Of a stretch of DNA of 64,000 nt, positions 5,703 to 28,139 are shown piece by piece. Location of the stretch: positions 2,361,640 to 2,425,639 of the forward strand of contig KV748181.1 of assembly GCA_001692895.1 (NCBI GenBank), given 5' to 3'. The stretch's first letter is position 1; the number at the start of each line of letters is the position of its first letter. The translations under genes were made by a program, and so were the position numbers. A model generated the notes under the pieces. That model ran no database searches. It was not told the origin of the DNA and saw only the letters and a program-made list of their open reading frames with translations. This DNA comes from Cenococcum geophilum 1.58. Its lineage: Eukaryota; Ascomycota; Dothideomycetes; Gloniales; Gloniaceae.

Positions 5703-5745
5703 CTAATTAGGATTTTCTATACCGGGCATACAAAATCGCTATTAG
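5703..5745. repeat. Palindrome P1 (copy in A2)
   Basis: Core 5711-5737 is a degenerate form of the 27-bp palindrome seen intact at 10191-10217, with outer arms ctaat ... attag (RIP forms of CCAAT ... ATTGG). It is followed 51 bp later by palindrome P2. Confidence 0.85.
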
Positions 5746-5795
5746 CTTGGTGAAATATAGGGAAGTCTTAGCAAGCTAAATCTAACTAATTAGAC

Positions 5796-5818
5796 AACTT
5801 TAACCGGCGGTCAAAGTT
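5796..5818. repeat. Palindrome P2 (copy in A2)
   Basis: The 23 bp has arms aactttaaccg / cggtcaaagtt around one centre base. The preceding ctaactaattaga and the following tccttaacatctt are shared with the copy in G at 28117-28139. Confidence 0.85.
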
Positions 5819-5981
5819 CCTTAACATCTTCGCGCCGCAAGTGTACTACCTATCTCTCTATACGCAAAATTAGGACGCTCTTTCCCTTCTAATTTTTTCC
5901 CTTATTAAGGTTTTTATAGGGTTTTATTAAGGCCTAAGTATATAAAGGATTAGGGACGACCCTTTTTAAAGGGGGGGGCAT

Positions 5982-6195
5982 TGTTAGGTAAAACCTGAGT
6001 ATATAATTATATAGCTGCAAGGCACAGGCAACTTGTATATAACTTGCCTATAAGGCACGTGCTCTATATATACCTAGGGAAACCCCTTCCTTACCTCGTA
6101 CCTTAGACTCCTCCTTCTACCTTAAGGATTCGTCTACTGTATAATATACCCTATTGTTCTATTATTGGACTCCCTATCTATATCCTTACCTTATA
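5982..6195 (+). repeat. A2 right LTR
   Basis: Preceded by a run of eight G (polypurine tract, 5968-5979). Repeats 2104-2312. Followed by TSD attat (6196-6200), after which the RNase H of A resumes. Confidence 0.88.
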
Positions 6196-6200
6196 ATTAT

Positions 6201-7000
6201 TTAATTACTATTTTAATAGCGCATAGAGCTTAAAGGAACGAACTTTTAAATTAAGATATATACAGACTATAAAGCCCTAGAGTACTTTATAACTATAAAG
6301 TAGGTTATTAAATAATAAGCCTAGTAGGCTAAAATACTCTCCTAATTCTTTTTTATAATTATATATCGTTCTAGTAAGTAAAACTCTAAGGCTAATACTT
6401 TAACCTAAAAAGAATAAGATATAGGACCCTAGGATAAGCTAAAGACCTAATATTAGACGCGCGCCCTTCTTTATCCTAAACAGCTTAACCTACAGATTCT
6501 TAAGGAGCTAGACTCCCAGCTAAACAAGCTAACATTAATAAAGAAGACCTTAAATAAACTAATAGGGCTAATTAATTACCTCCTAACTACAAACCGCATG
6601 GCTAACGCCTTAAAGGCCCTCCGCGATTAAGCTGTAAAAGGAAACCCCAATTTTAAAGTAAAGGAAGGGTTACTCCTATATTAGGAGCGGCTTATAGTCC
6701 CTAACATCAATAATCTACGGACTAAACTAATCCGCGAAGCTTATTACTAAGTTTCTACGGCATACCTTAGTAAAAACAAGACCCGTAAAATTATTAACTG
6801 CCACTACTACTAGCTAAAAATAGTTATAAATATTAATCGATATATACGGAACTACGAAGACTATAAGAGAGTTATAATCCTACGGGATAAGACCTTAGGA
6901 CTACTTAAGCCACTCCTAATACCAAAGCGCCCTTAGCAGTATATTTTTATAGACTTTTATAAACTACCTAGGGACCGTAACGGATACGATATAGTTATAG
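6201..7000 (+). pseudogene. A: RNase H end and integrase start
   Basis: RNase H continues with RIELKGTNF and IYTDYKALEYFI (about 6222-6290). The integrase zinc region follows: LIREAYY, then INCHYYxLKIVININRYIRNYEDYKR (about 6725-6880, a fungal HHCC domain). The start of the core reads FIDFYKLPRDRNGYDI (about 6945-6993). At 7000 the core is cut by element B1; it resumes at 13361 with VNCFSKRPFLIPYYK, and removing one atag copy restores the usual spacing. Confidence 0.88.
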
Positions 7001-7243
7001 TGTGGGAGGGTACGACCACTCTCAGATGGGAAAGTCACAGTGCCGTCTGTCTGTCTGTCGGTCGGTCGGTCGGTCGGTCGGTCGGTCGTCAGTCGTAATC
7101 AATCAGTAGGAAAGCAGTCAGTAAGAAGAAAGGAAAGAATGTATTCCGGTAGGTCATGATGTCTAAGAAGGAGGGAAGCCGAAGACTCTATAAATACAAG
7201 AGAATGCCAAGGTACTAGGCGTGAGCCATTTTACCCCACCACA
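7001..7243 (-). repeat. B1 left LTR (3' LTR of the element)
   Basis: Contains a (GTCG)n tract at about 7055-7088, within a ctgtctgtcggtcgg context. Near-identical to 13110-13360. Confidence 0.95.
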
Positions 7244-7264
7244 TACCTCCCCCACCAAGAACGT
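7244..7264 (-). promoter_or_regulatory. B1 polypurine tract
   Basis: Read on the minus strand it is ggtgggggaggta directly before the LTR start TGTGG. This is the expected plus-strand priming site of an LTR element and sets the orientation. Confidence 0.7.
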
Positions 7265-7439
7265 TGTCCCCTAACGTTCTATATAATAGAAGAATAGCCA
7301 AAAAAAGCATAGCGAAAGCAGAATAGAAAAAGGAAAGCACATCCCTAAAAGAACGCAGATAACCTCGTCCTCAGCTCTCCTATAGAACTGTTCTACGGCG
7401 TCCTTCCGTTATCCATAGCTAAGATCTAACCTAGTAACT

Positions 7440-8060
7440 AGGAGTAACTAGGACAGCAGTAAATCAGAAATAATAGCGACAGCAGCAATGGCAGTGATAG
7501 CAGTAACAACAGTAACAGCAGTAGTAGTAACGGTAATAGAAATAGCAATAAAAGCAGATATCTAGCGCAGTAAAATAAAACAGGACGGTCAGCGGTAGAA
7601 CGGTTAGTAACAGAATAGTCGGTAGAAGAACTCAGTCGGTATAGCAAGCAATAGGACATCTGGCAGTAGAGCTTTTAATAGCAGAACACTCAGTAACGGC
7701 AGACGGTCGATGGCAGTCAGTCAGTAGCAGTCGGTCAAAACAGCAGTAGCAGAACAATCGGAATAGTAGAACGGAACGGTCAAACAGCAGCAGTAGAATA
7801 GCTAGTCGGAACAGCAGTAGCAGTAGCAGTAGAACAGTCGGTCGGCGGCGGTCGGTCGGAGTAGCGCTCGGTAAAAACAGTAGAACGGAACAGGTCGGTC
7901 AGAGCAGTTGGGCGTCATAGCAGATCCAGCAGATCTAGCAGTAAAATAGATCTAGCAACGGTACAGATCTAAAACAATAGAGACAGAGCAGTCGGTTAAG
8001 ACAGTAGGACAAAGCAGTCGGACGGAATAGCAGCAGCAGCGGCGGCGGTAGTAGGGCAGT
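7440..8060. repeat. B1: AGC/AGT triplet-rich low-complexity tract
   Basis: Dense runs of cag, tag, aac and agt triplets, broken by short gtcggtcgg segments. Any open frame here (for example a poly-Leu frame on the minus strand) is a by-product of composition. The same tract, more decayed, lies in B2 at about 16680-17340. Confidence 0.85.
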
Positions 8061-8099
8061 CGATCAAGACGGCAGAGGCTATAACCCGACTCAATCGTT

Positions 8100-10120
8100 C
8101 GGCTGGTCATTTGATATTAAGACTCTGCATCTAGCTCTGCATCGGTCTGCATCGTACACGGCTCTCGATTAAGGCTCTATCCGTGGCATTGCATCAGGCC
8201 CTGCATCGTCAAGCTTTTACGTCCGCATAGCTCTGCATCTGACTGTGCGTCTGACTGCGCGTCAGTAGCTCTGCATTGCATAGTCTGTGTCCGTGTCTAC
8301 GTGGGTGCCTGCATGCCTGCTTTAACTGTCGGACGAAGACTGTCTAGTTGGTCGACGACGACGTCCTGCAACTGATCGTTCGGTCGGTCGATTAAGGTAG
8401 AAAGTCAGCCCGGTCAAAGGCTCTGATTGTCCTGATTTGAATGCGGAGACGGCGTTCAGCTGATTGAGATTTAATGAGGCCCTGGCTTGACTCAAGGTGT
8501 CTTCTGCTGCATGTACGACTGGGGCTTTGCATCCATAGACAATCGATCAAGGCTTCGCATATATAGGCGTCCAGTTAAGCTGCCGTGCTGTTGTCCAATC
8601 AAGGCTCTACACCTGTATGCTCCATATCCATAGACTCCGTGTATAACTGTGTGAGACTCCGTGTAAAGCTCCGTAACTATATCTACGGGAAAGATCATTC
8701 TAGTTAACTAGTCCGTAGGCGTTAAGACGGGCGGCAGTTAATCAATACGGAGGTAGGCAGTCAAGGGAAGAGGCACTCGCAGAGGCTCCAAAACGTTAAT
8801 TGACTGTGTTTCCGACATCCTTCTGGCCGTATACTAGTTTCCTAATTAGGTCTAGTGCCTGCGGTAATGCATCTTTGACTGCCGATCGAAGACATCTAAC
8901 GGCGACGGTAACTAATTCGGTTTGGCTGTAACAACGTACAATCGACTGACGTTCAAATAGGGTATTAGGCCGGCCCGACCGAAGCTCTAGTTAATCCGAC
9001 TTGACTATAGAGGCGGCATCCGATTGATCAAGACTTAACTAAGGCTCTAGCTTAACTCAAGGCGTCTTCTGCTGCATGTACGACCTAGGCTCTGCATCCG
9101 TAGGCTCTGCATCTGCAGACAATCGACCAAGACTCTGGCTGTGCAGTCGTTCGTCAAAGCTCTACATCCATGCAGTCGTTCAATTGGGGCCCTGCATCCG
9201 TAGTCGATTGAGGCTCTTAGTGTCCACCAGACGTCCAATCCAGAGACCTGTCTTAAGACTTCCTCCTTCGCGAGCATAAACGGCAGCTTCCAGTAGACTA
9301 TTTCTGCAGGCCCGTTGCTTTCCTAGGGCGTCTTTTATAGCTGCTTTCTTCCCTTTCTAAGCCGTCCTTGCTTGACTCTTTCGGCATATCCTTAGGCTTT
9401 TGCGGCTGCTTCTTTGCCCCCGCTACTGGCAGTACGCTCACGTATCTTTAATCTTCTTCTAGCTTAAGAGCCTTCTAGGGACTATCTTCTGCTTCCAGTC
9501 TCTTTGTTATCCGGTGGCAGCTTCTCGGCTATTGTGACTACTTCCGTCGCATATCCCTTGCCCTTGCGTCCATAATACAGTCCTTTCGTCAAGACGATCT
9601 CTGAGAAGTGCTGGCTCCTATACGTCCAATTCCTGTTTCCCTTATATCCTCGATAAGGCCCTTCACTAGCTCAGCCAGACACGGCTCGGTACTGTCTTCA
9701 GTCGCATAAAGATGGCTTAGGTACGCGGTGCTTTGTTACTGATATCGTGCTGCTGCCTTTATGTAGGTCCCTTCCTTGCCGCGGTGTCTGTTCTTGTCGT
9801 GCAGCTGGCGCAGTACTGAATTCGGATGGCAGTGACAGTTGTGCTGCGATTATTTGTCGTTCGAATAAGGAATAAGGTCGGCCCGGTCGAAGGCTCTAAT
9901 TTAACGACATTCGACTGATTCGATGCAGTGACGTGACGTGCTGGTATCAAGGCTCTGGCTTGATTCGACTCTTCGACTAGTCGCGGCTTCTATGCAGTTG
10001 TTCGATTGACCAAGGCTTCCGTGTAGTCGTTCGATTAAGGCACTGTATACAGCTCTGCATCATATAATCGGCTCTGTATCCGTGCAATCAATTAAGGCTC
10101 TCGGTATCCGTTCTCGTTGT
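8100..10120. repeat. B1: degenerate short repeats (ctctgcatc family)
   Basis: Irregular recurrences of ggctctgcatc, aatcgatcaag and gtcgttcg-like words at roughly 20-45 bp spacing, especially 8100-8290, 8520-8660, 9050-9210 and 9950-10110. I see no protein domain. B2 carries the same region, decayed, at 17380-19600. Small open frames here do not look like genes. Confidence 0.7.
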
Positions 10121-10182
10121 GCAACTACATCATCGAATTCTAGGGGCGGTGTAGAGTTCTGCCGGCTCTATTGCTAAATAGA

Positions 10183-10225
10183 CCAATCAGGATTTTCCAT
10201 CCCCGGGATGGAAAATCGCTATTGG
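10183..10225. repeat. Palindrome P1, intact copy
   Basis: Core 10191-10217 is a perfect 13+1+13 palindrome, with arm gattttccatccc and its exact reverse complement around a single C. Outer arms CCAAT (10183-10187) and ATTGG (10221-10225) extend it to 43 bp with 3-bp loops. It could form a strong cruciform or hairpin. Confidence 0.95.
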
Positions 10226-10890
10226 CTCGGCGACAGGCGGTAAGCTAAGCTGATATCTTTACAGCAGTAGGTCGTCGCAACTAACGCATCTCGACACGTT
10301 GTAATCAAGAAAATAAACAAGAAAAGGAGCTTTAGGAAATATAGTAAATAAGCAGACAAATAGAAATCTTTTATACGGTCGTCACCTGCGTCCCCTCCCC
10401 CACCTTAGAGCTTGACTGTCCCCTAGTCGAACATCCTACACCTGCGGTGGAGCCTGCTTCGGAGCTTGCTGCGGAGCCTAGTTACACGGTCGTCTCTAAG
10501 GTCGCGGCCAAGGGTCGGACGATCCGTCCATAGGTACCACTTGATAATAGTCTTCCCTAGCTTCAGCTGCCTTATCCGTAGGCCGTGACCTAATCTGGAC
10601 GTAATCTCCTAGTCTTACATTGTTCTCCTGCGGCTTCACAGCTGTCCTAGTTGCATAGCTGTCTTCAAGGGTTAGGCGATTCTAATAGTAGTCCCCCCAG
10701 TTCATACTTTTCTCATCACTAATTTTTAGCGCTGCTCCGTTATGGAAGGCCCGCTGCTGCGTCTGTTCTTTCTTCGGTCTGTCTAAGTCTACTCCTTGGT
10801 ACGTACGGAGCCAGTTCTTAATACCTTTCAGTCGTCCTTTATTGCCGAGCCACGGAAGTACTGGTCCAGGTCAATCGCGCGTCCCCGCTA

Positions 10891-13128
10891 CTAGCCTTCC
10901 TCGATCAGACAGATGTACAAGTCCTTACTAGATAAGATCCTTAAGCCCTTAGCATTCGTACTTAGTGAAACGGTGACTTCCTCCGCATCCAAAACAGGTC
11001 TGCAGGCCTTATCCTCGCGTACCTTGCTAACCCCGTGCGTCCCGCTACGGTCGTCCAAAGGCAGTAGAATCTTGCGGATATCGACAGTCTTGCGGATATT
11101 GAGATTCCTGCGGAGGTTGAGAGTCATGCGGAGGTCGGAAGTCCTGTGGATATTAAAAGTCTTGCGGAGGTCGGGTGCTATTCTGCCAGTCTTTATATCC
11201 TGGTGCCAGGCCATATCCTTATGCTAGGCTTTAAACTGTAGCTTAATTCGTAGTAGGCGACTGCTGCTGCACTAGGGTTCCTCCGTGTACACCTGGTTTA
11301 ACTAGGTCAAGAAGTCTGCCTTCTTTCCTACGGTCAAGCTCCTTAAGTTCTAGGCCCGTTTCCTGGTTGGCTTAACGGGCATCGGCTGTCTTATTTGGCT
11401 AAAAGATCGTAGGTAGTCGAAGGGTAGCATCTTTACTTATAACTGGCTGCTGATTACAGAACTACTTAACCAGCTAACGAAGGCTCTGGTCCTTGGGGTC
11501 CATTTTTAACAGACGATCTGCGCCCTTATATAAACTAAGTCTGTCTTCTACCGCTCTCAGTAACTAATAGAAGTTAAAGGACTCTCGTCTATCTAGATCA
11601 GCTCCCGTTTTAGCCATAGCGTGTCTTTAATATTTAAGCGGAAGTCCTTTTATAAACCAGTATCCTCGCTAACCGTTCTCTAGGTTGCCTGCTTCGGTAG
11701 CCTTTTAGAAGATTAGTATAAACTGCCTACAGTACTCGCGCACGTTAGGTGGGCTACTCCTACACTATAGTACGTAGGCCTCCAAGAATTCTACCGTCTC
11801 CATTTCACAAAAGCGGTTACTTCCTCGGTATTCTGCCCTAAGCTTCCTTACAAGCTCCGTCCAATTGCCAGCTATAAATTCAGGTAGACTTCGGATCCAC
11901 ATTCCTATCCAGTAATCGCAGTATTCCGGAAGACCCTGGTGCTTCTCCTTGCTCGTAACATAATATCGGGCGCATAGTCTTTCGTACTGCTCGATAAATT
12001 GTAACACGTCTTATCCTATAAAGTACGGAGATCCAACAGTTCCTAGGGCTGGCAGAGGCTGGGTTACAACGTAGATCCTATCTCAAGTCGTCAACTGCTG
12101 GCTGTAGGGCGCATCTAGAGCTTCCTTGGGAGCTTGCAGGTAGTCCTTGCGGTTCTTGTCCTTCATCTGCTAAGGGTTATCGGTCCTAGGTATCACGGGT
12201 GAATGCTGCGGTAGGTCTGCTTGCATTGCCGCCTAAGGTAATAGTGTCCTAGACGGCTGTCCTAGTATTGGTTTATACTCAGCAAAAGAGGTATAGGCTT
12301 CGATTCCTTCTGGCTGCTTCTTAACGCCTAGAGGTCGGTCTTCCTAGGAGAGCACAGAATCGCCATCTTCTACTACTGCCGGGTCTCGATACGTCCGTCT
12401 ATTTTGGCCTGCCGTTACTCCGCGCAGTAGGGTGCTGCTAAGCCTTACGCTTCTACTTACATCTACTTCTTCATAGAACGCCTCTAAAGCTGCCGCTGAT
12501 ATAATCCGAATAACTCAAAAGAAGATAAAGCTAAGCCAAAATAGGAAGCTTTCAAGGAGAAATCCGATCTCGTATGCTTGCGACCTTGCTCGGTATTGTC
12601 CCTGTTCTTAAAGGGCAGTGCTAACTTCCTCTGCTGCCAGATGCCTTAGATCTCGTTTCCATCTAATTGACTAGCCCTTGGCTACCTATCGTCTCTGCAT
12701 TTTCAATAAAGCTCTGGCCATGCTCGTGCGCAGGTAGGAGAAATATCGGCCGCCGTCGAAGTTGTCTGATTGGCTCACTGGTTCGCCTAACGTCCTTGCT
12801 CGTAACTTTCCGAGACACTCTTTTACCACTCTTGTTGCCACTCTTTGGCCTATGCGTAGAGTCTGGCTATCCTATCTTTTTCCGATACTACCTGGTTCCC
12901 CTCGTTGTCCGATACTACCTAGTACTCTTCTACTGTCTCATCTGTCTGGCTGGCGGTTCTTCTGCAGCTAGTCGTTCTTCTACAGCTAGGTGTTCTTCTG
13001 TAGCTATAGTATATTCCTGCGCATCTCCTGTGTATATAGTTGTGTATAGAATGCCAGACTTCTAATCCAAAGGGCTTGCCGTCGTCCCCACATGGAATGC
13101 CATAAAATATATGGGAGGGTACGACCAC
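10891..13128 (-). pseudogene. B1: Gag-like coding region, partly open
   Basis: Read from right to left just inside the 5' LTR. The clearest piece is 11765-12007 (80 aa), with QYERLCARYY, DYWIGMWIRSLPEF and GNWTELVRKLRAEYRGSNR, which resembles the helical capsid part of a retrotransposon Gag. Piece 10891-11214 (107 aa) has a nine-residue-like repeat of the type DLRKT / NIRKT / DIRK, a basic repetitive tail. A third open piece (12919-13128) starts inside the LTR and may be non-coding leader. Family role: particle formation (inferred). Broken. Confidence 0.6.
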
Positions 13129-13360
13129 TCTCAGATGGGAAAGTCACAGTGCCGTCTGTCTGTCTGTCGGTCGGTCGGTCGGTCGGTCGGTCGGTCGGTC
13201 GGTCGTCAGTCGTAATCAATCAGTAGGAAAGCAGTCAGTAAGAAGAAAGGAAAGAATGTATTCCGGTAGGTCGTGATGTCTAAGAAGGAGGGAAGCCGAA
13301 GACTCTATAAATACAAGAGAATGCCAAGGTACTAGGCGTGAGCCATTTTACCCCACCACA
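13110..13360 (-). repeat. B1 right LTR (5' LTR of the element)
   Basis: Repeats 7001-7243 with two more GTCG units. Followed by TSD atag (13361-13364) and then the integrase core of A. Confidence 0.95.
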
Positions 13361-14180
13361 ATAGTTATAGTTAACTGCTTTAGTAAACGCCCGTTCTTAA
13401 TTCCCTATTATAAAAACATTAATACTAAAGAGGCAGCCTAACTATATATCTATTATATCTACTAAATCTACAGACTACTAGATACTATTATATCTAATTA
13501 TAGGCTATAGTTTATATTAGCCTTTTAGAATAAGTTTACTCAGATCCTAGGTATTAAGCTAAAGCTTTTTATAGCTTACTACCCCTAAATAAACGGCTAG
13601 ACGGAGATTATAAACTAGTACCTAAACTAGAGGCTTAGGCTCTTTATTAACTATTTCTAGGACAACTAGTTTAAACTACTACCCTTAATAGACTACGCCT
13701 AAGCAACCCTACCCTATAACTCCACAGGGTTTGCCCCAATTTAGCTAGAAATAGGATACTTACCCTATATAAGCTTTAACTAGAAAAGGCCAGAAGAACC
13801 CCAAACTGTATAAGAGAAGCTATCCTATATTAAGGCCTAATAGTACGCCAAACGCTTAGAGGAAGCCTAAATAGTAGCCTATAAGAACCTAAAAAAAGCT
13901 TAGAGGTTAATAGAATAGTAGGTAAACAAGCACCGTTAAGAGCCTGGCTTTACCCCTAGCGATATAGTCTAGGTTATAATAAGGAATTAGAAGACTAAAT
14001 AACCCAGCTATAAGCTAAACTACTAGATAGCAGGACCGTATAAGGTTTTTAAGAAGATAGGCAACTCGTATAAGGTAAAGCTCCTAGATTTAATTAGGGT
14101 TTACCCTATCTTTTCACCAGATAAGTTATGGAAAGCTATAAACAACTTATTGCCTAAACAAAAGAACAAGCTTCCCCTAC
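13361..14180 (+). pseudogene. A: integrase core and C-terminal part
   Basis: Continues the integrase core: VNCFSKRPFLIPYYKNI, then FxSNYRLxF- and FLxRLxKFTQILGIKL-like segments (about 13500-13560), and AYYPxINGxTEIINxYLN (about 13580-13625, the usual AYHPQTDGQTE motif). Later it has PVxGDIVxVI (about 13950) and YKLNYxIAGPYKVFKKIGNSYKVKL (about 14000-14085), the post-core GPF/Y-like module. Family role: integration of cDNA. Broken fossil. Confidence 0.85.
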
Positions 14181-14189
14181 CAGTTTAAG

Positions 14190-14405
14190 TAAACAGTAAC
14201 GATAAATAGAAAGTTAATAAAATACTAGCCTATAAGAGAGTACAGGGAATGCTAAAATACTATATCTAATAGAAGGGCTACAATCTAGACCTAATCTAGT
14301 ACCCTGTATAGAACTTTATAGGCTACCCCTAGAAGCTTAAAGAGTTTTATAACTAATACCCTAATACGCCTAGACCTCTAAAGTACCTAGACAAATAGAT
14401 GGAAT
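14190..14405 (+). pseudogene. A: chromodomain remnant
   Basis: Translation shows KVNKILAYKRVQGMLKYYI, then KGYNLDLI, then FIGYPxKLKEFYNxYPNTP, matching the chromodomain pattern (VExIL..R...YLVKWKGY....TWEP......LL..FH). It lies downstream of the integrase, the diagnostic place in chromoviruses, where it is thought to steer integration toward methylated-histone chromatin. Confidence 0.85.
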
Positions 14406-14541
14406 GCTAGTATAATAAAGATAATAAGTTACCGGAAGAATATAGAGATAAAAACGCCCTAAAGCCCTAATATAGCTATCTGCTAAATTCTGCTAAATTC
14501 TACCGTTTTCTGCTAGTACTATAAAATTTCAGATATCTAGG

Positions 14542-14564
14542 AACTTTAACCGCCGGTTAAAGTT
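14542..14564. repeat. Palindrome P2, intact copy in A
   Basis: A 23-bp palindrome with arms aactttaaccg / cggttaaagtt around one C. It is followed by atctaattagttagat, the same flank that P2 carries in G and A2 (here on the opposite strand from A2). No P1 is visible beside it. It lies between the chromodomain and the 3' LTR. Confidence 0.92.
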
Positions 14565-14781
14565 ATCTAATTAGTTAGATCCGTGCTAAGACTTTTAGCG
14601 GCTACTCTTTCTAGCCTAGTGCTTCTATTTAGCCTATAATTGCCTTTTATACTTAGTCCGGACGTACTCGTGTCCCCTTTATCTTCTTATCTTATATTTT
14701 ATAATCCTATATTTATAAGCCTAGTATTACCCTATTTCTAACTAAGCCTAAAGGTAGGCTTTCTTTTAAAGAGGGGGGTGA

Positions 14782-14991
14782 TGTAACGGCGCTATTGCAC
14801 GTTACCTGCCAAATTCTACTATATTCTGCCGACCTATAATTAGCTTACCCGGAGCTAGCGCCTTAGCGGCTTACTTTATATATTTATTTACATCGGTCCT
14901 AGCGACCCCTTTTTTCCCTTTTTCTTAGCTTAGTATCTTTGTAATACAGCATTCTATAAGCTTTGGTTTAGAGGTATTTATATAAGCCGTA
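14782..14991 (+). repeat. A right (3') LTR
   Basis: A polypurine tract aaagaggggggtga (14768-14781) precedes tgtaacggcgc. The right edge is not certain: either ttgtaataca (14948) or gccgtaata (14991). I prefer 14991 because C1-homologous sequence starts immediately after it. No partner LTR is in the window. Confidence 0.65.
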
Positions 14992-16189: not shown

Positions 16190-16455
16190 TGTGGGAGGGT
16201 ACAACCTCTCTAAGATAGGAAAGTCACGGTGCTGTTAGTCAGTCTATTAGTTAGTCTGTTAGTCGGTTAGTCGGTTAGTCGGTCAGTCGGTCAGTTAGTT
16301 AGTTAATTAGTCAGTTAGTTAGTAAGAAAGGAAGAAAAGAGTGTATTTCCGGTAACTGGTAGGGTCGTAATAGAAAGAAGGAGAGAAGCCAAAGGCTTGA
16401 TATATACAGGAAAATGCTAAGGCACTAAGTAGTGGCCCATTTTACCCCACTATAT
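16190..16455 (-). repeat. B2 left LTR
   Basis: The GTCG tract of B1 is here decayed to gtcagtc/gttagtt repeats. Ends ccccactata. Confidence 0.9.
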
Positions 16456-16679
16456 ACCTCCCCTACTAAGAACGTTGTCCTTTAACATTCTATATAATAG
16501 AAGAATAGCTAAACAAAAGTATAGTGGAAGCAGAATAGAAAAAAGAAAGCACATCCCTAAAAGACCGCAGATAACCTCGTCCTTAGCCCTCCTATAGAGC
16601 TATTCTACGGTGTCCTTCCGTTATCTATAGCTAAGATCCGATCTTCCTATTAGTAGCAATTAGGACAGTAGTAAACCAG

Positions 16680-19600
16680 AAATAATAATGGTATCGGTAA
16701 TAGCAGTAACAGTAGTAGCAGCAGTAACAGCAGTAATAGTAATAGTAGTAGAAACAGTAATAAAAGTAAACACTTAGCGTTGTAAAATAAAATGGAATAG
16801 TTAGTAGCTAAATAGTAAGTAACAGAACAGTCGGTAGAAGAACTTAGTCCGTATAGTAAGTAGTAAAATATACCCAGTAGTAGAACTTCTAATAGCAGAG
16901 CACTTAGTAATAGGTTAGTTAGTAGCTGTTGGTTAGCGGTAGTTAGTTAGAACAGTAGCGGTAAAATAGTTAAATCGGTGGAATAGAACGGTGGAATAGT
17001 AGTAGTAAAATAGCTAGTTGGAATAGCAGTAGCAGTAGCAGTAGCAGAAGCAGTAGAATAGTTAGTAGAAACAGTAGAATGGAACAAGTCGGTCGGAACA
17101 GTTAGGCGGCATTAGTCGGTTAAGATAGCAGCGGTAGAACATTTGGAATAGTAGAATAGAACGGTTAGAACGGCAGTTAGAATAGGATAGTTAAAAGAGT
17201 AGCAAGCCTAGAGCAGATCTAGCAGTAAAGTAGATTTAGTAACGGTATAGATCTAGAACAGTAGAGACAGAGCAGTTGGTTAAGACAGTAGGGATAGAAC
17301 GGTTAAACGGAATAGCAGCAGCAGCGGCGGCGGTAGTAGGGCAGTTAATTAAGATGGCAGAGGCTATAACCCGACTCAATTGTTCGGCTAGTCATTTAAT
17401 ATCAAAACTCTATATCTAGCTCTGTATTGGTCTGCATCGTACGCAGCTTCTTAGTTAAGGCTCTGCCCGTAGCTTTGCACTAGGCCCTACATCTAGCTAT
17501 ACGTCTAGCTATACGTCTAGCTGCGCGTCTAGCTGTGCATCTAGCTGTGCATTAGTAGCTCTATATTGCATATTCCGCGTCTATGTCTGCGTCCGTGCCT
17601 GCGTCTGTATCTGTGTGTATATACCTTAACTGCTAGCCAAAGACTGTCTAATTAGTCGGCGACGATGTGTAACTAATCGTTTGGTCATTTAATTAAGGTA
17701 GAAAGTTAGCCCGGTTAAAGGCCCTAATTGTCCTAATTTAAATACGGAGACAGCGTTTAGCTAATATAGACTTAATATGGCCCTGGCTTAACTTAAGGTG
17801 TCTTCTACTGCATATATTATTGGGGCCCTGTATTTATAGACAATCGATTAGACTTTTATATAGACGTATAATTGGTTAAGGCTCCTTATCTGCCGTTTAA
17901 TTAAGGCTTCGCATATATAGGCGTCCAGTTAAGCTGCCGTGCTGTTGTCTAATTAAGGCTCTATACCTATATGCTCTATATCTATAAATTCCGTATATAA
18001 CTGTGTAAGACTCCGTATAAAGCTCCGTAACTATATTTATAGGAAAGATTGTTTTAGTTAACTAGTCCGTAGGCGTTAAAATGGGCGGTAGTCAATTAAT
18101 ACGGAGGCAGGAAGTCAAGGGAAGAGGCTCGCGTAGAGGCTTTAAAACGTTAATTGACCGTGTTTCCGACGTCCTTTTAGCCGTATACTGGTTTCCTAAT
18201 TAGGTCTAGTGTCTACGTGCCTACAGTAATGCATCTTTAACTGCTAATTAAAGACGTCTAATGGCGACGGTAACTGATTTGATTTAACTGTAATAACATA
18301 TAATCGACTAACGTTTAAATAGGGTATTAGGTCGGCCCAACTAAAGGCTTTAATTTAACGACTTAACTTATATAGGCGGCGTTTGGCTAATTAGGATTTG
18401 ACTAAGGCTCTAGCTTAACTTAAGGCGTCTTCTACTATACGTATAACCTAGGCTCTACATCTATAGGCCTTATATCTATAGACAATTAATTAAAACTCTA
18501 GCTGTGTAGTTGTTTGGTTAAAGCTCTACATTTATATAATCAATTAAGGCTCTACATCGCATAATTAAGGCTCTTAGTATCCTTTAGACGTCTAATCTAG
18601 AGACCTATTTTAAGATTTCCTCCTTTATAAGTACTAATAGTAGCTTCCTTTAAACTAATATAATAGGCCTAGCGCTTTTATAAGGCGTCCTTAATAGCTA
18701 CTTTCTTCCTTTTCTAAACCGTCCTTGCTTTTGGCTTCTTTAGTATATCCTTAGGCTTTTACAGCTGCTTCTTTATTCCCGCTACTAGCAATATACTTAT
18801 ATATCCTTAATCTTCCTCCGTCTTAAGAACCTTTATAGAATTATCTTTTGCTTCTAGTCCCTTACTTACTATCTACTAACTCTATACTTTGTTTAAGTCG
18901 TCCTTTAAAACCATCCGGTAGCAGCTTCTTAGCTATTATAACTACCTCCGTCGCATATCCCTTACCCTTATATCCATAATATAGTCCTTTATTAGACAAC
19001 CTTTAAGGAAAAGCGCTGGCTCCTATACGTCCAATTCTTGTTCCCCTTATAATCCCTAATAAGGCCCTTTACTAGCTTAGCCAAATACGGCTTTATCTTA
19101 TCTTTAGTTGTATAAGGATAGCTTAGGCTTAATATAGTCAGCTATACCTTATATATAATCTCTTGCAGTGCCTTTTTATATACTACTCTACCGTTTCTAC
19201 GGTACTTTGTCACTGATATTATACTATTGCCTTTATATAGGTCCCTTCCTTACTACAGTGTCTATTCTTATCGTGCAGCTAGCGCAGTACTAAATTTAAA
19301 TAGTAGTAACAGTCGTGCTATAATTAGCTGTTGTTTAATTAAGGAACAAGGTCGGCCCGGTTAAAGGCTCTAATTTAACAACATTTGACTAATTTAATTT
19401 AGTAACGCAATGTGCTAATATCGAGGCTTTAGCTTAATGCGATTCCTTAACTAACCGTGGCTTCTATGCAGCCGTTCAATTAAGGCTTTATATACAGCTC
19501 TACATCTAGCTCTACATTGTATAATTGGCTTTATATTATACAATTAGCTCTATATCCGTACAATTAATTAAGGCCCTTAGTGCCGTTCTTATTGTATAGC
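16680..19600. repeat. B2: triplet tract and degenerate repeats
   Basis: Counterpart of 7440-10120 in B1, with the same order of words after C-to-T decay (ctctgcatc becomes ctctatatc, and so on). No protein domain seen. Confidence 0.7.
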
Positions 19601-19660
19601 TAGCGCAGCATCGAATTTTAGGGGCGGTGTAGAGTTCTACTGGCTCTATTACTAAATAGA

Positions 19661-19703
19661 CTAATTAGGATTTTCCATCCCCGGGATAGAAAATTGCTAT
19701 TAG
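19661..19703. repeat. Palindrome P1 (copy in B2)
   Basis: Core 19669-19695 keeps gattttccatccccggga and loses symmetry only through transitions; outer arms ctaat ... attag. Same place in the element as in B1. Confidence 0.9.
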
Positions 19704-20399
19704 CTTAGTGATAGGCGGTAAGCTAAACTAATATCTTTGTAGTTAGTCGTCACAACTAACGCGTCTTAACGCGTCGCGATTAAGAAAATAAATAAGAAAA
19801 AGGAGCTTTAGGAAATACTATAACTAAGCAGATAAATAGAAATCTTTTACGCAGCCGTTACCTATGTCCCCTCCCCCACCTTAGAACTTAACTGTCCCCT
19901 AGTTAAATATCCTACACCTAATGCGGAGCCTGCTGCGGATTAATAGCTTTAAGCGTCTGTCTCTAATAACCGTCTCTAAGGGTCGGGCGATTCTAATAGT
20001 AGTCCTTTTTAGCTTTAGCTGTCTTATTTATAGGCTATAACCTAATCTATATATAATCTCCTAGTTGTATATTATTCTCCTACGGCTTAGTAGCTATCTT
20101 ACTATTTCTAAAGGTTATACAATTTTAATAGTAGTCCCCCTAGTTTATACTTTTCTCGTTACTAATCTTTAGCCCTACTCCGTTATAAAAGGCCCATTAC
20201 TACATCTGTTCTTTCCTTGGTTTATTTAGGTCTGTTCCTTAATATATATAGAGCTAGTTCCTAATATTCTTTAACCGTTCTTTATTGCTAGGCCATGGAA
20301 GTTTAGGTCCAGGTTAATCGCGTATCCTAGCTACTAGTCTTCCTCAATTAGATAGATATATAAATCCCTACTAGATAAGGTCCTTTAGCCCTTAGTATT

Positions 20400-22660
20400 T
20401 ATACTTAGTGAAATGGTAACTTCCTCTATATCTAAAATATATTTACTAGTCTAGGCCAGACCGCATATTATACTACTACGGCCATTTAAAGGCAGTAAAA
20501 TCTTGCGGATATTAATAGTCCTGCGGATATTAAGAGCTTTATAGAGGTTAAGAGCCTTATAGATATTAATAGTCTTATAGAGGTCGAGAGTCTTACGGGA
20601 TAAAGAGAGCTTAGGCACTATTCTGCTAGTCTTTATATCCTAGTGCTAGGCTATATCCGTATATTAGGCCTTAAAATACAGCTTAATTTAATAGCATTGT
20701 AAACCTTTCTAGGTCCTTTTAGATTTAGTTAAGGAACGGCATTAACTATATAGCTGCCGCAAGCTCCATCTTGCTTAATCTTAGGCTTTTCAGCTAATTT
20801 ACTATCTCTTCCATTTTCTAGTCTGTAGTGGGCAACTGCTATATTAGGGCTCCCCCGTATATACTTAGTCTAGCTAGGTTAAGAAGTCTTCCTTCTCTCC
20901 TACGGTCAAGCTCCTTAAGTTCTAGGTCCGTTTCCTGGCTAGCATAACAGATATCGGCCGTCTCGTTTGGCTGAAAGATTATAAGTAGTTAAAGGGTAGC
21001 ATCTTTACTTATAACTGGCTGCTAATTACGGAATTATTTAGCCAGATAACGAAGGCTCTGCTCCTTAGGGTCTATTTTTAATAGATAATCTGCGCCCTTA
21101 TATAAACAAAGTCTGTCCTTTATGGCTTTTTGCAGCTAATAGAAGTTAAAGGACTTTCGTCTATCTAGGTTAGCTCCCGTTGTGGCCATAGCGTGTCTTT
21201 AATATTTAAGTGGAAGTCCTTTTACAAATAAGTATCCTCGCTAACCGTTGTCCAAATTGCCAGCTTTAGTAGCCTTTTAAGAGATTAATGCGAACTATCT
21301 ACAGTACTCGCATATTCTGTTTAGCGGATTATCCCTATACTGCTATATATAGGCTTCTAAGAATTCTACCGTTTCCATTTATCGAAATTAGTCACTTCCT
21401 TAGTATTCTGCCTTAAGCTTTTTTATAAGCTCCGTCTAGTCACTAGTTATAAATTTAGGCAAGCTTTAGATCCATATCCCTATCTAGTAATTATAGTACT
21501 CTAGAAGGCCCTAGTGCTTCTCCTTACTCGTTGCGCGGTATCAGACGCATAGCCGTTCGTACTGCTTAATAAACTATAATATGTTCTGTCCTGCGAAGTA
21601 GGGAGTTCTAATAGTTCCTAGGGCTAGCATAGGCTAAACTATAACGTAGATCTTGTCTTAAGCCGTTAACTATTAGTTATATACATCTAGAGCCTCCTTA
21701 AAAGCTTATAGGTAATCCTTACAGTTCCTATCCTTTATCTACTAAGAGTTATTGGTCCTAGGTATTACGAGTAAACGCTATAGTAGGTCTACTTGTATTA
21801 CTACCTAAGGTAATAGTGTTCTAGATAGCTGTCCTAGTGTTAGTTTATACTTAGTAAAAGAAGTATAGGCTTTAGTTCCTTCTAGCTGCTTCTTAACGCC
21901 TAGAGGTTGGTCTTCCTAGAAGAGTATAAAATCGCCATCTTCTACTACTGCCGGGTCTCGATACGTCTGTCTATTTTAGCCTGCTGTTATTCCGCGCAGT
22001 AGGGTGCTACTAAGCCTTACGCTTCCGCCTATATCTATTTCTTTATAAAATATCTCTAAAGCTGCCGCTAATATAATCCAGATAACTTAAAAGAGGATAA
22101 AGCTAAGCTAGAATAGGAAGCTTTCGAGGGCAGGTCTAATCTTATATACTTACAACCTTACTTAGTATTCTCTCTTCTGTTCCTAAAGGGCAGCGCTAAC
22201 TTCCTCTACCGCTAGATACCTTAGATCTTGTTTCCATCTAATTAATTAGCTCTTAGCTAATTGTCTCTACATCTTTAATAAAGCTCTAGCTATGCTTATA
22301 CGCAGGTAGTAGAAATCAGGTATCTCCGACTGCCTGTTAAAGCTATCTAATTAGCTCGCTAGTTCGCTTAACGTCTTTATATATAACTTTCCAAGACCTT
22401 TACCACCCCTTTTTACCTCTCTTTGGCCTGTGCATTAAGTTTAGCTATCTTATCTTTTCCGGGACTGCCTAGTTCCCCTTACTGTTCAATACTATAATTC
22501 TCTACTTCTACTATCTCGTCTATCTAGCTAGCGGTTTTTTTTATAGCTAGTTGTTTTTCTACAGCTAGCGGTTCTTCTATAGTCATAGTATATTCCTACG
22601 CGTTTCCTTTATATAGAGTTATATATAGAGTGCCAGACTTCTAATTTAAAGAGCTTTCTA
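20400..22660 (-). pseudogene. B2: Gag-like region, decayed
   Basis: Nucleotide-level counterpart of B1 10891-13128 (for example the segments at 21350-21600 and 22600-22680). No long open frame remains. It is identified only by homology to B1. Confidence 0.65.
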
Positions 22661-22688
22661 TCGTCCCTATATAAAATGCCATAAAATA

Positions 22689-22945
22689 TATAGGAGGGTA
22701 CAACCTCTCTAGGATAGGAAAGTCACGGTGCTATTAGTCAGTCTATTAGTCAGTCCATTAGTCGGTCAGTTAGTCGGTCGGTTAGTTAGTTAGTCAGTTA
22801 GTTAGTTAGTTAGTAAGAAAGGAAGAAAAGAGTGTATTTCTAGTAACTAGTAGGGTTGTAATAGAAAGAAGGAGAGAAGCCAAAGGCTTAATATATACAG
22901 GAAAATGCCAAGGCACTAAGTAGTGGCCTATTTTACCCCACTATA
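22689..22945 (-). repeat. B2 right LTR
   Basis: Repeats 16190-16455. Followed by atat and the Gag of D. Confidence 0.9.
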
Positions 22946-22949
22946 ATAT

Positions 22950-23760: not shown

Positions 23761-25555
23761 AAACGATATATACGTATAGAGGGATAATAATATACTATAA
23801 GGAACTAAAAAGTGTTTAATTAAGAGTTTTGCGTTCTATTATAGTAATATATACTAAATTTATAAGGACGCTAAGTACGGTATAAGCTATTAGCTATAAA
23901 AGCTAAAATTATTAAAGTTTAGAGGAACTAACAAACTATCTCGTAGATCGGATATTAAGGACGATAAATTTAATATAGGCGAAATATTTAGCAACGATAA
24001 AGTAATAAAGGTAGCTCACTAGGAGTATATAGGCCTTAGAGACGTTATATTAGAAGTAAAGATTAAAACCGCTATAAAGCAAGGATCGATAATAAAAATT
24101 ATAATACTATTAGATACGGTATCTATCGCTTAATAAGATAAAAGGAGAAATATCTAATTATTAAAAAAAAGGATTAAGTAAGTAAACGACTGCTAGTGCC
24201 AGCTTACTACTTAATAAAGGTAAAAGGCCATAGGCTTAAGATTCTTAAAAAGAGATAAAATATGCTTAAGGACCTATAATAGACAAGAACTAATAGAGTA
24301 GAGTAATAGTTTAGTTTAGTAATATATAAATAAGCTTAGGACGAAGTTTCTTAAAGGTATAAGATTCTTAAAGTAAGATAAGATAAGAATACTATAAAAG
24401 CCTAGTTGGACTAAGGCTAGAGCAAAACTTAAGGAGAAAGTAAGCTTAGGACTAAGACTTTAATATACAAATAAGGACTATTAAGAAAATTAACATTAAG
24501 ATTAAGAAGTAAGAAGACTTTAAAGATTTACTTATAAGGCGAAAAGTAAAAAAAAGTATAAAGGAATTTAGATAGAGAATCCTTATATAGTAAGAATAGA
24601 AACTAAACTAGAGATTTATTATATTAGGTTGTATAAGGGACAGAGCACCTATACGAAAAATAACTAATAGGCCTAGGGTAGGTATACTAAAAGTAAAATG
24701 GCTTACTAAACTAGATTAAGAAAAGGATTTAGGGATCCTTACTAGATTTAAAGAACAATATATAAAGGGCTATTACGATATAGTAATAAGAAGATACTTC
24801 CTTATAGATAAGCCGTATATACTCTAATAGCTATATTAAAAGTAGTATAGGCAGCGATATAACGATAAGTGGGAGGATTTCTATATATAGTTAAACGAAT
24901 AAGTTATTTAGGACTACCCTATTATAGAGAAGGCTATAAATTATATTAAGGGAGCCTTAATTATAATATTAAAGGATTTAGAGGAATAATTAGAGGACTA
25001 GAGGAGTAAAAGGTAAATCTTAGTACCCGTAAATAAAGTTATAACGTTTAGATTAACATAATAAAGGTTTAAACTTAAGAATAAAGACGAGTTAAGAGTT
25101 AACCTAAAGTACCTAGTATATTATACGCTATTATAGATTGCATGCGTGGATAATATATGCGATATATACAAAAATCTTTAAAAAAAGAATTAGAAGTACC
25201 CTATAAGAATATATTAGGCGCTAAATAAGTAGTAGTATAGAAATACTAAGTATATATATAGATAGCATTTAGTAAAAGTTTAGAAGTTAGGAGACTTAAT
25301 ACTTTAACTAGAAAGATTCCTTACGGAAAAATGCTTAGATGAATAATAGTAGTAGAAATTCTTAGAGAATATATGTCTATAGTATATAGAGGATAAAAAG
25401 TAAACTAGGTATTAGCTAAAGAGCGAGCTAAGTATAATAGGATTAAGTAGCTAATAGTTAGGAAAAGTAGAGGCCTATAGAACTAAAGGGAGCTAGTAGT
25501 AGACCCTTATACCCTTAAAGGAATTTAAGGATAATACCTAAATTTATAAGTTAAT
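23760..25555 (+). pseudogene. D: region between Gag and protease
   Basis: About 1.8 kb between the Gag zinc knuckle and the protease with no domain I can name. Codon texture is still Lys/Glu/Arg rich on the plus strand. It may be a Gag C-terminal extension or a spacer. No sign of a further insertion. Confidence 0.45.
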
Positions 25556-25559
25556 TAGG

Positions 25560-26443
25560 AAGATTAATAGTTCGAAGCGCTAATAGATAGTAGAGTAATA
25601 AGAAACTATATATTACTAGTAGTAGTTAAAAGAATAGGATTGCCTTATAGATAAAAGGAGTAACTTTACCTATTAATTATAATTTTAGGAGATCTAATAA
25701 CCTATAGAGGAGGGATTATTAATCTTAAAACAGGACCTATTTAAATAACTATTAAATGAAAATAAATTAAGATATCTTTTAATATTCTACTATTAGGACG
25801 AGATAAAGCAGTATTAAGAATTCCTTAGTTACAGGAATATAATCTAAAGATTAATTAGATTATAGGTTAGGTTAATATTGGAAATACTTAACGCCGTAGA
25901 ATATAATAATAAACTAAGCTAGTATAGTACTAAGTTAGAGTAATATATAAGGAGACTAAGTAAGGCTTAAGTTATATACTAAAAAGAAACTATAAGTATA
26001 GTAAGAAACTATAGAGTCTAGAAAGTAAGAAGCTATTAAATTATATAGTATAGAACTATAAAATAGAGTTAGAGCTAGGAATAAGTCTAAGGTTTTTTCC
26101 AACCTATAAGCTTACTTAAGAGGAGTTAAGAGCACTTAAGGAGTTTATTTAAGAAAACTTATAAAAAGGATACATTAGACTATTATAGTTATTAGTAGGA
26201 TATCTGGTATTATTTATACCTGAAAGTATGGAAAACTTAAACTATATATTAACTATAGATAGTTAAATAGTATTACTTAAAAGGATAGGTATCCTTTACC
26301 CTTAATTAGCGAAGTCTAAAATAGAATAGGTAATATATAAATCTTTACAAAGATAGACCTAAAATAGGCGTATTATTAGATTAGAATTAAGGAAGGCGAT
26401 AAATAAAAGGCAGTCTTTAGGTTAAAGGAAGGACTATATAAAC
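25560..26443 (+). pseudogene. D: protease and first half of RT
   Basis: The protease reads FEALIDSRVIRNYI (about 25565-25605) and later LLGRDKAVLRIPxLQEYN (about 25790-25840), matching ALIDSGATxNFI and LLGxxWLxxxNP. RT starts near 26110 with ALKEFIxENL and LVLFIPES, then ILTID and YP block forms up to REGLYKL-like sequence at 26443. There LINE F interrupts it; RT resumes at 48480. TSD actatataaac marks both edges. Confidence 0.88.
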
Positions 26444-27575
26444 TTTTTTTTATTTTTATTTTTTAATATCCATTGTATTATACTATATATAATACTACGC
26501 ATACAGCCTCTAGGCTATGGCGCTATAGTCCTATATATATAAATCCCTTATAGCAGCTTAATATATACTAGTAACTATATCCTAGTAGTTTATAAGCCCC
26601 TAAACTAGGGGTTTATAGTTTCTTAGTAAAATACTAAATTATAAGCAACTACTAGGTAATGAGAAAACGGTAGAAAACTATAAGAAATAAGAAATCCTAA
26701 CGCCTATCCCTATCCTTTTGTAATTTAATTCTGTCCTTTTGCTTACTAATATCTCTTTACTAAAAGCCTAGTAGGAGTTACCTCCTTCTATAGATCCTGC
26801 CGTTATTAGCCACTTTCTAGTAGCTATCCCTGTCCTACTTAGAAATAGAAAAAGCGCCTCTCTTCCTTTTTATATATAAAATAGCTTCTTTAAAGAGAGA
26901 GAAGAGCCTAGTTTTTTTTTAAATTTCTCTTCTTTCTTCTCTATATAGGTTATAGTCTAGTAGTAAATGCCTAGGGGTTTATAGTGCTCTATATTCTCTA
27001 AAGTATCTACTATCTTTATCCTCTCCCCCTATTACTTTAGAGAAGGATTTAAAATAGCCTTTTCCTAACTTTAGCTGGAAGAAGGCTGATTGTAGCCTTT
27101 TAGGATATTTATCCTTAGGGGCTTTAAGAGAAAAGGAATAGCTTCCTTTATAGATCCTAGTATAGTGTTTTCCCTTATTCTTATTCTGCTGCTAGTTATT
27201 TTCCCACTATTTTAGTATCTTTTCTCTTGCTGCTCTCCCTATATAGGCTAGAAAGGTATAAAAAGATTATAATTTTCTTTTAGAAAGGCCCTTTTTAGCT
27301 AGCTTATTTATTATTTTATTTCTATAGATTCCTAAATAGCTAGGAACCCAGTAAAAGTTAATAGAGATCCCCTTACTAGCTAAATAGGAACAGCTTTGCG
27401 TAATTTTAAAGACTAGTTCTTGCCCTCCTGTAAGAGATTTAAGCTATAATCTCTTAATAGCTGCTTAGCTATCTATAAAGATATAGACTTATTTCTCTTT
27501 TAGTCTTTATTATTTTAGGTGTTCTAGGGCCCTATAAACTGCATAAAGCTCTACGTTTATAATTTCCGTATAGGG
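26444..27575 (-). pseudogene. F ORF2: RNase H domain and 3' end
   Basis: On the minus strand, a VYIFIDSxAAI-like motif lies at about 27455-27490 (the usual form is YTDGS), and FYWVPSYLGI with KIINKLAKKG at about 27290-27350, the conserved end of LINE RNase H. A Cys-poor tail and 3' UTR follow to the poly(A) at 26444. The domain is typical of Tad1 and I clades, where it removes RNA from the RNA/DNA hybrid. In-frame stops are frequent (TAG/TAA at former CAG/CAA/TGG). Gypsy G cuts the domain at 27575. Confidence 0.85.
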
Positions 27576-27877
27576 TATAAGGGCGTAAAGAGACTTTGGG
27601 AAGATTTAAAGGAATGATATAAATTCTATCTAAATCTAAGGGTATATAGCTCTCGCTAAGAACAAGACGTTGGGTAAAGAAGAGAAAGGAATAATAAGAG
27701 AATTATATAATTAAATAGTTAGGGGCTTGGTGGTTAATGCGTGCGTATATATACACGCGGTTTTTAACAGACTTTGGTAATTCGATTAATCTAGCAGATT
27801 TTAGTTAAAGCGTTAGAATTTAACTGTTAAGTGTTTTACTAAGACATTCCTACTATAACTAGGCTAGTTCTATTATA
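27576..27877 (-). repeat. G left LTR (3' LTR of the element)
   Basis: 302 bp, repeats 33247-33548. The tcaatgcgtacgcatat region differs mainly by C-to-T changes; this copy is the more decayed of the two. Confidence 0.93.
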
Positions 27878-28001
27878 GTACCCCCCCTTTTGGCCGAAGG
27901 TTTAAATAATTTAATTTTAGTTAAGACTTATAACTTATTGTGTGTTATATTTTCGCGTCGGGTAGCGGTATAGGGTTTTGCTAATTTTATCGTTAAATGG
28001 A

Positions 28002-28139
28002 CTAATTAAGATTTTCTATCCCTAGGATAGAAAATCACTATTGGCTTAGTTAAGGCGGTAAGCAGAACTAATATCTTTATAGTAGGTCTTAGTAAGACAG
28101 ATCTAACCAATTAGATAACTTTAACTGTTAGTTAAAGTT
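28002..28139. repeat. Palindrome module P1+P2 in G
   Basis: P1 spans 28002-28044 (core 28010-28036: gattttctatccc and its inverse around a T). P2 is 28117-28139 (aactttaactg / tagttaaagtt). The 72 bp between them include aggcggtaagc and ttagtaagacagatctaacc, the fullest copy of the module. It lies between integrase and the 3' LTR. Confidence 0.92.

What the first reader, a model, noticed from the sequence alone, without database searches (positions are those of the whole stretch)
5703..28139. Two-palindrome module (P1/P2) shared by unrelated LTR elements
P1 (27-bp palindrome gattttccatccc-C-inverse, inside inverted CCAAT boxes) occurs at 5703, 10183, 19661 and 28002. P2 (23 bp, aactttaaccg-N-inverse) occurs at 5796, 14542 and 28117. 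A2 and G carry both in the same order with similar flanks. The hosts are a Gag-only element, the B family and two gypsy lineages, and orientation relative to the host is not constant (A2 is opposite to G). Possible explanations: a tiny hairpin-type mobile unit, a shared protein-binding or regulatory cassette captured by many elements, or a recombination/replication signal. I know of no named element with this layout.
Basis: partly seen in the sequence, partly recalled or inferred. Interest (0 to 1): 0.85.

Follow-up and report, generated by a model that had tools for sequence, protein, structure and literature searches.

The report
Palindrome cassette shared by fungal retrotransposons
A roughly 200-base stretch with two near-perfect palindromes sits inside several otherwise unrelated, mutation-riddled retrotransposons and most likely served as a shared control switch that they exchanged by recombination, although no experiment or genome-wide count backs this yet.

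Summary
P1 (13-N-13) and P2 (11-N-11) are real, far above chance, and belong to one homologous cassette of about 200 bp (best copy 27932-28161). It is complete in a gypsy element (G) and a pol-less element (A2). Its P1 half is in two copies of another pol-less family (B1, B2), its P2 half in a truncated gypsy (X14). Paired LTRs mark A2, B1, B2 and G as separate insertions; only G has a clear target duplication. The cassette is antisense to its host in G, X14 and B, sense in A2. In G, X14 and A2 it lies just upstream of the polypurine tract (PPT); in B it is mid-element. A related gypsy, H, lacks it. Between families the palindrome blocks carry fewer transversions and gaps than the linker (13 of 276 columns against 23 of 131). 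I read it as a DNA-level regulatory cassette (CCAAT boxes around dyad sites) passed between LTR families by recombination, comparable to plant Sirevirus palindromic motifs. RNA-hairpin and passive-mosaic readings remain open. A small transposon is unlikely but not excluded. No fungal genome could be searched; copy number, empty sites and function are untested.

The parts
2104..6190 (+). Host A2: LTR element without detectable pol (LTRs 2102-2312 and 5980-6190, 92% identical; Gag-like ORF by position; PPT 5968-5978 by eye; target duplication unclear)
5640..5844 (+). Cassette copy in A2, sense to host, just upstream of the PPT
5711..5737 (+). P1 in A2 (11 of 13 pairs, decayed by transversions)
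5796..5818 (+). P2 in A2 (10 of 11 pairs)
7002..13360 (-). Host B1: pol-less LTR element (LTRs 7003-7243 and 13112-13360, 96% identical; flank match ATAGT in a locally repetitive flank; gag-type reading frame; no RT/INT domain)
10131..10280 (+). P1 half of the cassette in B1, antisense to host, after the gag zone
10191..10217 (+). P1 in B1, perfect 13-1-13, inside symmetric CCAAT/ATTGG boxes (10183-10187, 10221-10225)
16191..22945 (-). Host B2: second copy of the B family
19609..19765 (+). P1 half of the cassette in B2 (P1 19669-19695, 11 of 13 pairs)
13361..14782 (+). Host X14: 3' end of a gypsy element, cut by B1 (SH3_Tf2-1-like at 13961-14116; PPT 14768-14778 and LTR start about 14782 by eye)
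14516..14690 (-). P2 half of the cassette in X14, antisense to host, between the end of pol and the PPT
14542..14564 (-). P2 in X14, perfect 11-1-11
27576..33548 (-). Host G: gypsy element (RVT_1, RNase H, Integrase_H2C2, SH3_Tf2-1; target duplication TAGGG; PPT 27881-27891 on - by eye)
27932..28161 (+). Most complete cassette copy, antisense to host G
28010..28036 (+). P1 in G (12 of 13 pairs)
28117..28139 (+). P2 in G (10 of 11 pairs), preceded by two small dyads 28086-28098 and 28101-28116
57508..63461 (-). Comparison element H: related gypsy without the cassette; the end of pol runs up to the PPT (by eye)

Best explanation
The unit is a cis-acting regulatory cassette at DNA level. P1 and P2 are dyad-symmetric sites for dimeric DNA-binding proteins. 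P1 sits exactly in the middle of two inverted CCAAT boxes, and P2 follows a third CCAAT box 5 bp on. The P1 block reads nearly the same from either strand, so it can work in either orientation, as an enhancer, insulator or bidirectional/antisense promoter near the 3' LTR or inside the element. It was transferred between LTR families by recombination or template switching and kept because it helped expression. Shown here: homology, positions, orientations, block conservation. Inferred: protein binding, transcriptional effect, route of transfer.
For: Homologous cassette in four families, recovered with each left out. Against G, over B1, A2 and X14, the palindrome blocks with left arm carry 13 transversion or gap events in 276 columns and the linker 23 in 131 (Fisher p 4e-5); with left arms and ragged ends left out, 7 in 196 (p 2e-5). 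B1 and G differ by no transversion or gap over 81 bp of left arm plus P1 block; the differences there are transitions, which RIP can make. The CCAAT boxes are symmetric about the P1 centre in B1. Orientation to host varies (A2 sense; G, X14, B antisense). No paired change in P1 or P2 other than transitions was seen, which fits sequence-specific binding better than a pairing constraint. Published precedent: palindromic CGG-CCG boxes in Sirevirus LTRs and upstream of env, proposed as regulatory (PMC2829016, passages read).
Against: No binding, expression or genome-wide evidence. Singly, the block-linker contrast is weak for A2 (8 of 130 against 5 of 30, p 0.07) and modest for B1 (p 0.02). In the B1-B2 comparison the cassette is not unusually conserved (139 of 573 overlapping windows have as few transversions and gaps). 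A2 has two broken P1 pairs, B lacks P2 at the cassette and X14 lacks P1, so neither palindrome is indispensable. The blocks were chosen after the palindromes were seen, and columns are not independent. Full CCAAT on both sides of P1 is present only in B1 (G keeps the right one; B2 and A2 read CTAAT and ATTAG), and at P2 only in G; the rest is inferred from the direction of RIP.
Confidence: 0.42

Rival explanations
1. Passive mosaic: the cassette is an old piece of one LTR family's 3' linker or U3 that was carried into others by recombination or nested fragments and has no function of its own; the palindromes look preserved because they are short and recently shared.
For: G and X14 have it at the same place and in the same orientation; X14's linker just upstream of P2 resembles repeats in one H LTR copy (E 1.5e-4, 0.001), though weakly the other copy (E 0.54); B and X14 keep only halves; the cassette is not unusually conserved within the B family.
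Against: Block versus linker contrast between families; H, closer to G than X14 is (131 of 310 against 97 of 286 identical), lacks it; three separate contexts.
Confidence: 0.25
2. RNA-level signal: hairpins in the 3' UTR of the genomic RNA act in packaging, dimerisation, export or priming, and let pol-less elements share an autonomous element's machinery.
For: Position between last ORF and PPT in G, X14 and A2; strong hairpins on both strands in B1 (z -3.3 and -3.2), P1 of G z -5.5, P2 of G z -3.7, P2 of X14 z -2.3; whole G cassette in host sense z -2.6.
Against: The whole A2 cassette folds no better than shuffles (z -0.1), A2 P1 z -0.8 and A2 P2 z -1.7; opposite orientation in A2; mid-element position in B; paired changes in G are transitions that RIP makes, so covariation cannot be claimed.
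Confidence: 0.2
3. Small mobile unit (MITE, Helitron-like or other hairpin element) inserted independently into several LTR elements.
For: Several hosts, two orientations, length of about 200 bp, hairpin near one edge.
Against: Edges differ between copies; no terminal repeat, and by eye no target duplication, common to the copies; homology runs past the possible Helitron-type end after P2; no further copy in the 64 kb window.
Confidence: 0.1

Closest known systems
Sirevirus repeated-motif (RM) palindromes, plant Ty1/copia (PMC2829016, passages read)
   Same: Palindromic dyads with a CGG-CCG core, some nearly identical in elements of very low sequence homology, located in non-coding regions and proposed as regulatory.
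   Different: RMs are short, in many clustered copies, in LTRs and upstream of env in plant copia elements; here single P1 and P2 in a cassette, in the pol-PPT linker or mid-element of gypsy and pol-less elements with RIP-type mutation; the core is CCG-N-CGG or CCC-N-GGG.
Dyad-symmetric activators of retrotransposons: Tnt1 box I and the activator in the copia 5' UTR (named in a passage of PMC2829016; details recalled)
   Same: Internal or LTR sites with dyad symmetry.
   Different: As recalled, described in single families; not shared by unrelated families in both orientations.
TR-GAG and other non-autonomous LTR elements (seen in search listings only)
   Same: LTR element with gag but no pol, depending on a partner; A2 and B look like this.
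   Different: As recalled, partners normally share LTR, PBS or PPT sequence; here LTRs differ and only the cassette was found shared.
Retroviral constitutive transport elements between last gene and 3' LTR (recalled)
   Same: Structured cis element at the same genomic place as in G, X14 and A2.
   Different: Act in sense RNA; here mostly antisense and in B mid-element.

Membership tests
Sirevirus RM boxes | Palindromic core CGG-CCG | tested here: inconclusive
   P2 has CCG-N-CGG and P1 CCC-N-GGG in the best copies: related in kind, not the same core
Sirevirus RM boxes | Multi-copy cluster in the LTR, in Ty1/copia | tested here: not met
   The cassette profile has no hit above noise in an LTR of the window; the pol-bearing hosts have gypsy-type domains
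MITE or small DNA transposon | Constant ends with terminal inverted repeats and target duplication | tested here: not met
   Edges differ between copies; no shared terminal repeat or duplication seen by eye
MITE or small DNA transposon | Solo copies and empty sites elsewhere | not testable with these tools
   No genome is held for the window; no further copy in 64 kb
Helitron-type element | 3' hairpin followed by CTRR end (recalled) | tested here: not met
   X14 has CTAG after P2, but G and A2 have CCTTAA and homology runs beyond
Old internal part of one LTR family | All hosts monophyletic, homologous position | tested here: not met
   LTRs of A2, B1 and G find only their own family; B position differs; the A2 and B1 gag regions find no relative outside their own family among 39 translated frames
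Non-autonomous gag-only LTR element (B) | LTRs and gag, no pol | tested here: met
   In-frame gag zone shared by B1 and B2 and no RT or INT in three frames of B1; gap runs multiple of 3 in 9 of 14 against 7 of 26 in the 3' zone, but transversions show no clear codon phase in either zone (25/17/19 and 31/26/25); gag named from an ORF and a zinc-knuckle-like motif by eye, no Pfam match
Non-autonomous gag-only LTR element (A2) | LTRs and gag, no pol | tested here: inconclusive
   LTRs and no RT or INT in three frames; Gag by position of the ORF only
Gypsy with Tf2-type integrase tail (G, H, X14) | SH3_Tf2-1 downstream of integrase | tested here: met
   G 32.4 and H 37.6 bits above the cut-off of 30; X14 20.8 bits, below the cut-off but collinear with G and H
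CCAAT-box regulatory site | Bound by a CCAAT-binding complex and active | not testable with these tools
   Sequence match only; the CCAAT-box reading is recalled knowledge

The most novel reading that the evidence does not exclude
A shared palindromic cassette works as a mobilisation or expression tag that links pol-less parasitic LTR elements to autonomous gypsy elements of other lineages, exchanged as a unit in either orientation and kept by selection although LTRs, gag and the rest of the elements are unrelated.
Probability: 0.15. Interest if true: 0.75.

Novelty: new variant of a known kind. Interest (0 to 1): 0.5.

Why it matters
Non-autonomous LTR elements are usually thought (recalled) to be tied to partners through shared LTR, PBS or PPT sequence. 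A cassette shared only in the linker, across LTR families and orientations, would be a different link between parasite and helper, and a concrete case of modular exchange of control sequences between retrotransposons in a genome with RIP-type mutation. Its hallmark (mainly transitions in the blocks, changes of other kinds mainly in the linker) can be checked in any fungal assembly.

Tried and rejected
Other copies: a profile of all copies finds no further full copy in the window. Weak P2-like blocks appear in B on the - strand at 22311-22356, 12738-12775, 17623-17659 and near 8.3 kb. With the A2 block as query the first three score 29.0, 26.5 and 27.5 against a null maximum of 24.9 in 40 windows; with the X14 block the best two (27.5 and 27.1, both in B2) pass the null maximum of 25.3 and the third (24.9) does not; with the G block the best is 25.5 against 26.5. 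One lies inside the gag frame, and B1 and B2 copies are not independent. Left as suggestive.

Public DNA: P1 and P2 exact or RIP-degenerate patterns gave 0 in viral contigs in 4 of 4 answered pattern scans; a protein scan with G's RNase H piece matched 22 stretches by pattern, none a relative. P1 gave 0 in genome contigs; P2 gave 2 bacterial Aestuariibacter contigs with a shared palindrome, taken as unrelated. These collections hold no fungi as such.

tRNA or known RNA family: none. RNA covariation: changes in P1/P2 arms that keep pairing are transitions RIP makes, so no claim. Within-B conservation: not exceptional. Loose transition-tolerant alignments over the whole linkers were dropped because shuffles scored highly. 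A first pooling of block columns (7 of 230, p 3e-6) had counted the left arm for B1 but not for A2; it is replaced by the even counts.

Literature: 62 papers hold at least one of six motif strings; the 20 listed are on unrelated subjects, probably primers, and were not opened. Searches on palindromes in fungal LTR elements and related terms (up to 20 rows listed each) showed no such cassette in titles or starts of abstracts. Two papers were opened, at passages only (PMC2829016; PMC3248453).
Full report
What the window is. It is repeat-dense DNA with 7 stop-to-stop ORFs of 120 aa or more, 6 of them in the simple repeats at 46.5-47.9 kb. In all ten stretches tested TpA/ApT is 1.38-1.95 and (CpA+TpG)/(ApC+GpT) 0.26-0.90, the signature of RIP (repeat-induced point mutation). 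I take it as a filamentous ascomycete; this is inference, as no genome is held and no source is given.

The observation. P1 and P2 are at the stated places and are among the best dyads of the window. Perfect odd palindromes with arms of 11 or more number 3 against a mean of 0.12 in 50 local Markov windows. They are parts of one longer homologous stretch: BLAST pairs A2-G (E 2.7e-14), B1-G (6e-16) and B2-G (5e-23) are direct, and profiles that leave a family out recover it in all four cases. X14 shares only the part from the P1 right arm to P2. B shares only the left arm, P1 and most of the linker. The most complete copy, in G, spans about 27932-28161 (left edge by eye) and holds P1, two smaller dyads and P2 in a row.

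Hosts. A2 (2104-6190) has LTRs 92% identical, an ORF right after the 5' LTR and a PPT before the 3' LTR, so it reads on +; no Pfam family matches in its three frames. Its target duplication is unclear (TTAT, or longer matches with a shifted edge). B1 (7002-13360) has LTRs 96% identical and flank match ATAGT, in a locally repetitive flank. It reads on -: an ORF of 81 aa that I take for gag lies at 11768-12010, the B1 and B2 gag zones align in frame over 745 columns at 58% identity, and gap runs are multiples of 3 in 9 of 14 cases there against 7 of 26 in the 3' zone; transversions, however, show no clear codon phase in either zone. No RT or integrase matches in B1's three frames, although it has the weakest RIP indices of the ten stretches. 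B2 is a second, more mutated copy. G (27576-33548) reads on -, with RT, RNase H, integrase zinc-binding and SH3_Tf2-1 domains and target duplication TAGGG. X14 is the 3' end of another gypsy on +, with SH3_Tf2-1 at 20.8 bits, below Pfam's cut-off but collinear with G and H. H (57508-63461, -) is a further gypsy. At E 0.05 the LTRs of A2, B1 and G find only their own family; the H LTR finds its own copies and, weakly, the X14 LTR (E 0.003).

Position and orientation. In host sense the order in G is end of pol, P2, P1, PPT; in X14 end of pol, P2, PPT; in A2 P1, P2, PPT (PPTs and the chromodomain-like ends of pol are read by eye, no Pfam chromodomain was listed). The cassette is thus antisense to the host in G and X14 and sense in A2. 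In B it lies about 3 kb upstream of the PPT, after the gag zone, antisense. H has no room for it: the end of pol runs up to the PPT (by eye) and the profile lists nothing there up to E 50. In the shared integrase region G-H identity is 131 of 310, H-X14 109 of 289, G-X14 97 of 286, so the two gypsies with the cassette are not each other's closest relatives by identity; with three unrooted sequences this does not decide between loss in H and separate gain.

Block conservation. Relative to G: B1 has 0 transversions or gaps in 81 columns of left arm plus P1 block, 2 in 4 ragged columns where its homology ends, and 7 in 53 linker columns. A2 has 3 in 32 left-arm columns, 4 in 47 of the P1 block, 1 in 51 of the P2 block, and 5 in 30 linker columns. 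X14 has 1 in 10 columns of the P1 block, 2 in 51 of the P2 block, and 11 in 48 linker columns. Together 13 of 276 against 23 of 131, Fisher p 4e-5; P1 and P2 blocks alone 7 of 196, p 2e-5; singly B1 p 0.02, A2 p 0.07, X14 p 0.006. B2 was left out as it is not independent of B1 (0 in 81; linker 7). The blocks were drawn after seeing the palindromes, and columns are not independent. Against this, the cassette is not exceptional between B1 and B2 (139 of 573 windows as low).

DNA or RNA. P1 folds strongly on both strands in B1 and on the strand tested in G, weakly in A2; the full A2 cassette is at shuffle level. Changes that keep pairing in G are C to T and G to A at mirror positions, which RIP makes on its own, so pairing constraint cannot be inferred. 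Letter conservation outside the hairpins (33 of 47 P1-block columns in four copies and 40 of 51 P2-block columns in three copies invariant, hairpin arms included) is easier to explain by protein binding to DNA. The P1 block, CCAAT boxes included, is nearly symmetric, which would make it blind to orientation, as the varied orientations require. The CCAAT reading itself leans on B1 and G; elsewhere the boxes read CTAAT or ATTAG, as expected after RIP.

What it works like and what it is. The nearest described thing I found is the palindromic repeated motif of plant Sireviruses (PMC2829016, passages read): dyads with a CGG-CCG core, some nearly identical between elements of very low sequence homology, in LTRs and upstream of env, with regulatory function proposed but not shown. 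It is not a member: element type, position, copy pattern and core differ. It fails the tests for a MITE or Helitron-type end. I rate it a new variant of a known kind.

Limits. All evidence comes from one 64-kb window. Without the genome, copy number, empty sites, phylogenetic spread and expression are unknown. In the searches listed under Tried and rejected I found no description of this cassette in titles and starts of abstracts of the held papers; most subscription papers are not held.

Noticed in passing
46157-46202: Two abutting 23-bp odd palindromes (46157-46179, 11 of 11 pairs; 46180-46202, 10 of 11), near poly-T/GTTGTTGC sequence that looks like a DNA-transposon end; not homologous to P1/P2.
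   Followed up: partly
47906-48119: Foldback element of about 214 bp, arms 83% complementary, probably a MITE-type DNA transposon.
   Followed up: no
22311-22356, 12738-12775, 17623-17659, near 8320 (all -): P2-like blocks dispersed in the B elements in host sense; three exceed 40 null windows with the A2 block as query, two with the X14 block, none with the G block.
   Followed up: partly
14479-14525: Linker of X14 just before P2 resembles repeats in one H-family LTR (63279-63324, E 1.5e-4; weaker), hinting that LTR sequence was copied into the linker.
   Followed up: partly
7045-7088 and 13154-13205: B1 LTRs contain a GTCG/CGAC tetranucleotide array.
   Followed up: no
1-2100 (+) and about 26236-26540 (+): Further gypsy pol fragments next to A2 and G respectively, probably cut by nested insertions.
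   Followed up: no
L001 1399-1421; L002 231-253: Two Aestuariibacter genomes share a palindrome aaactttaaccgatggttaaagttt with similar flanks, probably a bacterial operator, unrelated.
   Followed up: partly
47406-47900: Array of short repeats (GCAGAGCTTCGTGTAGAGCTTC-like), by eye similar to short repeats inside B; contains N bases.
   Followed up: no
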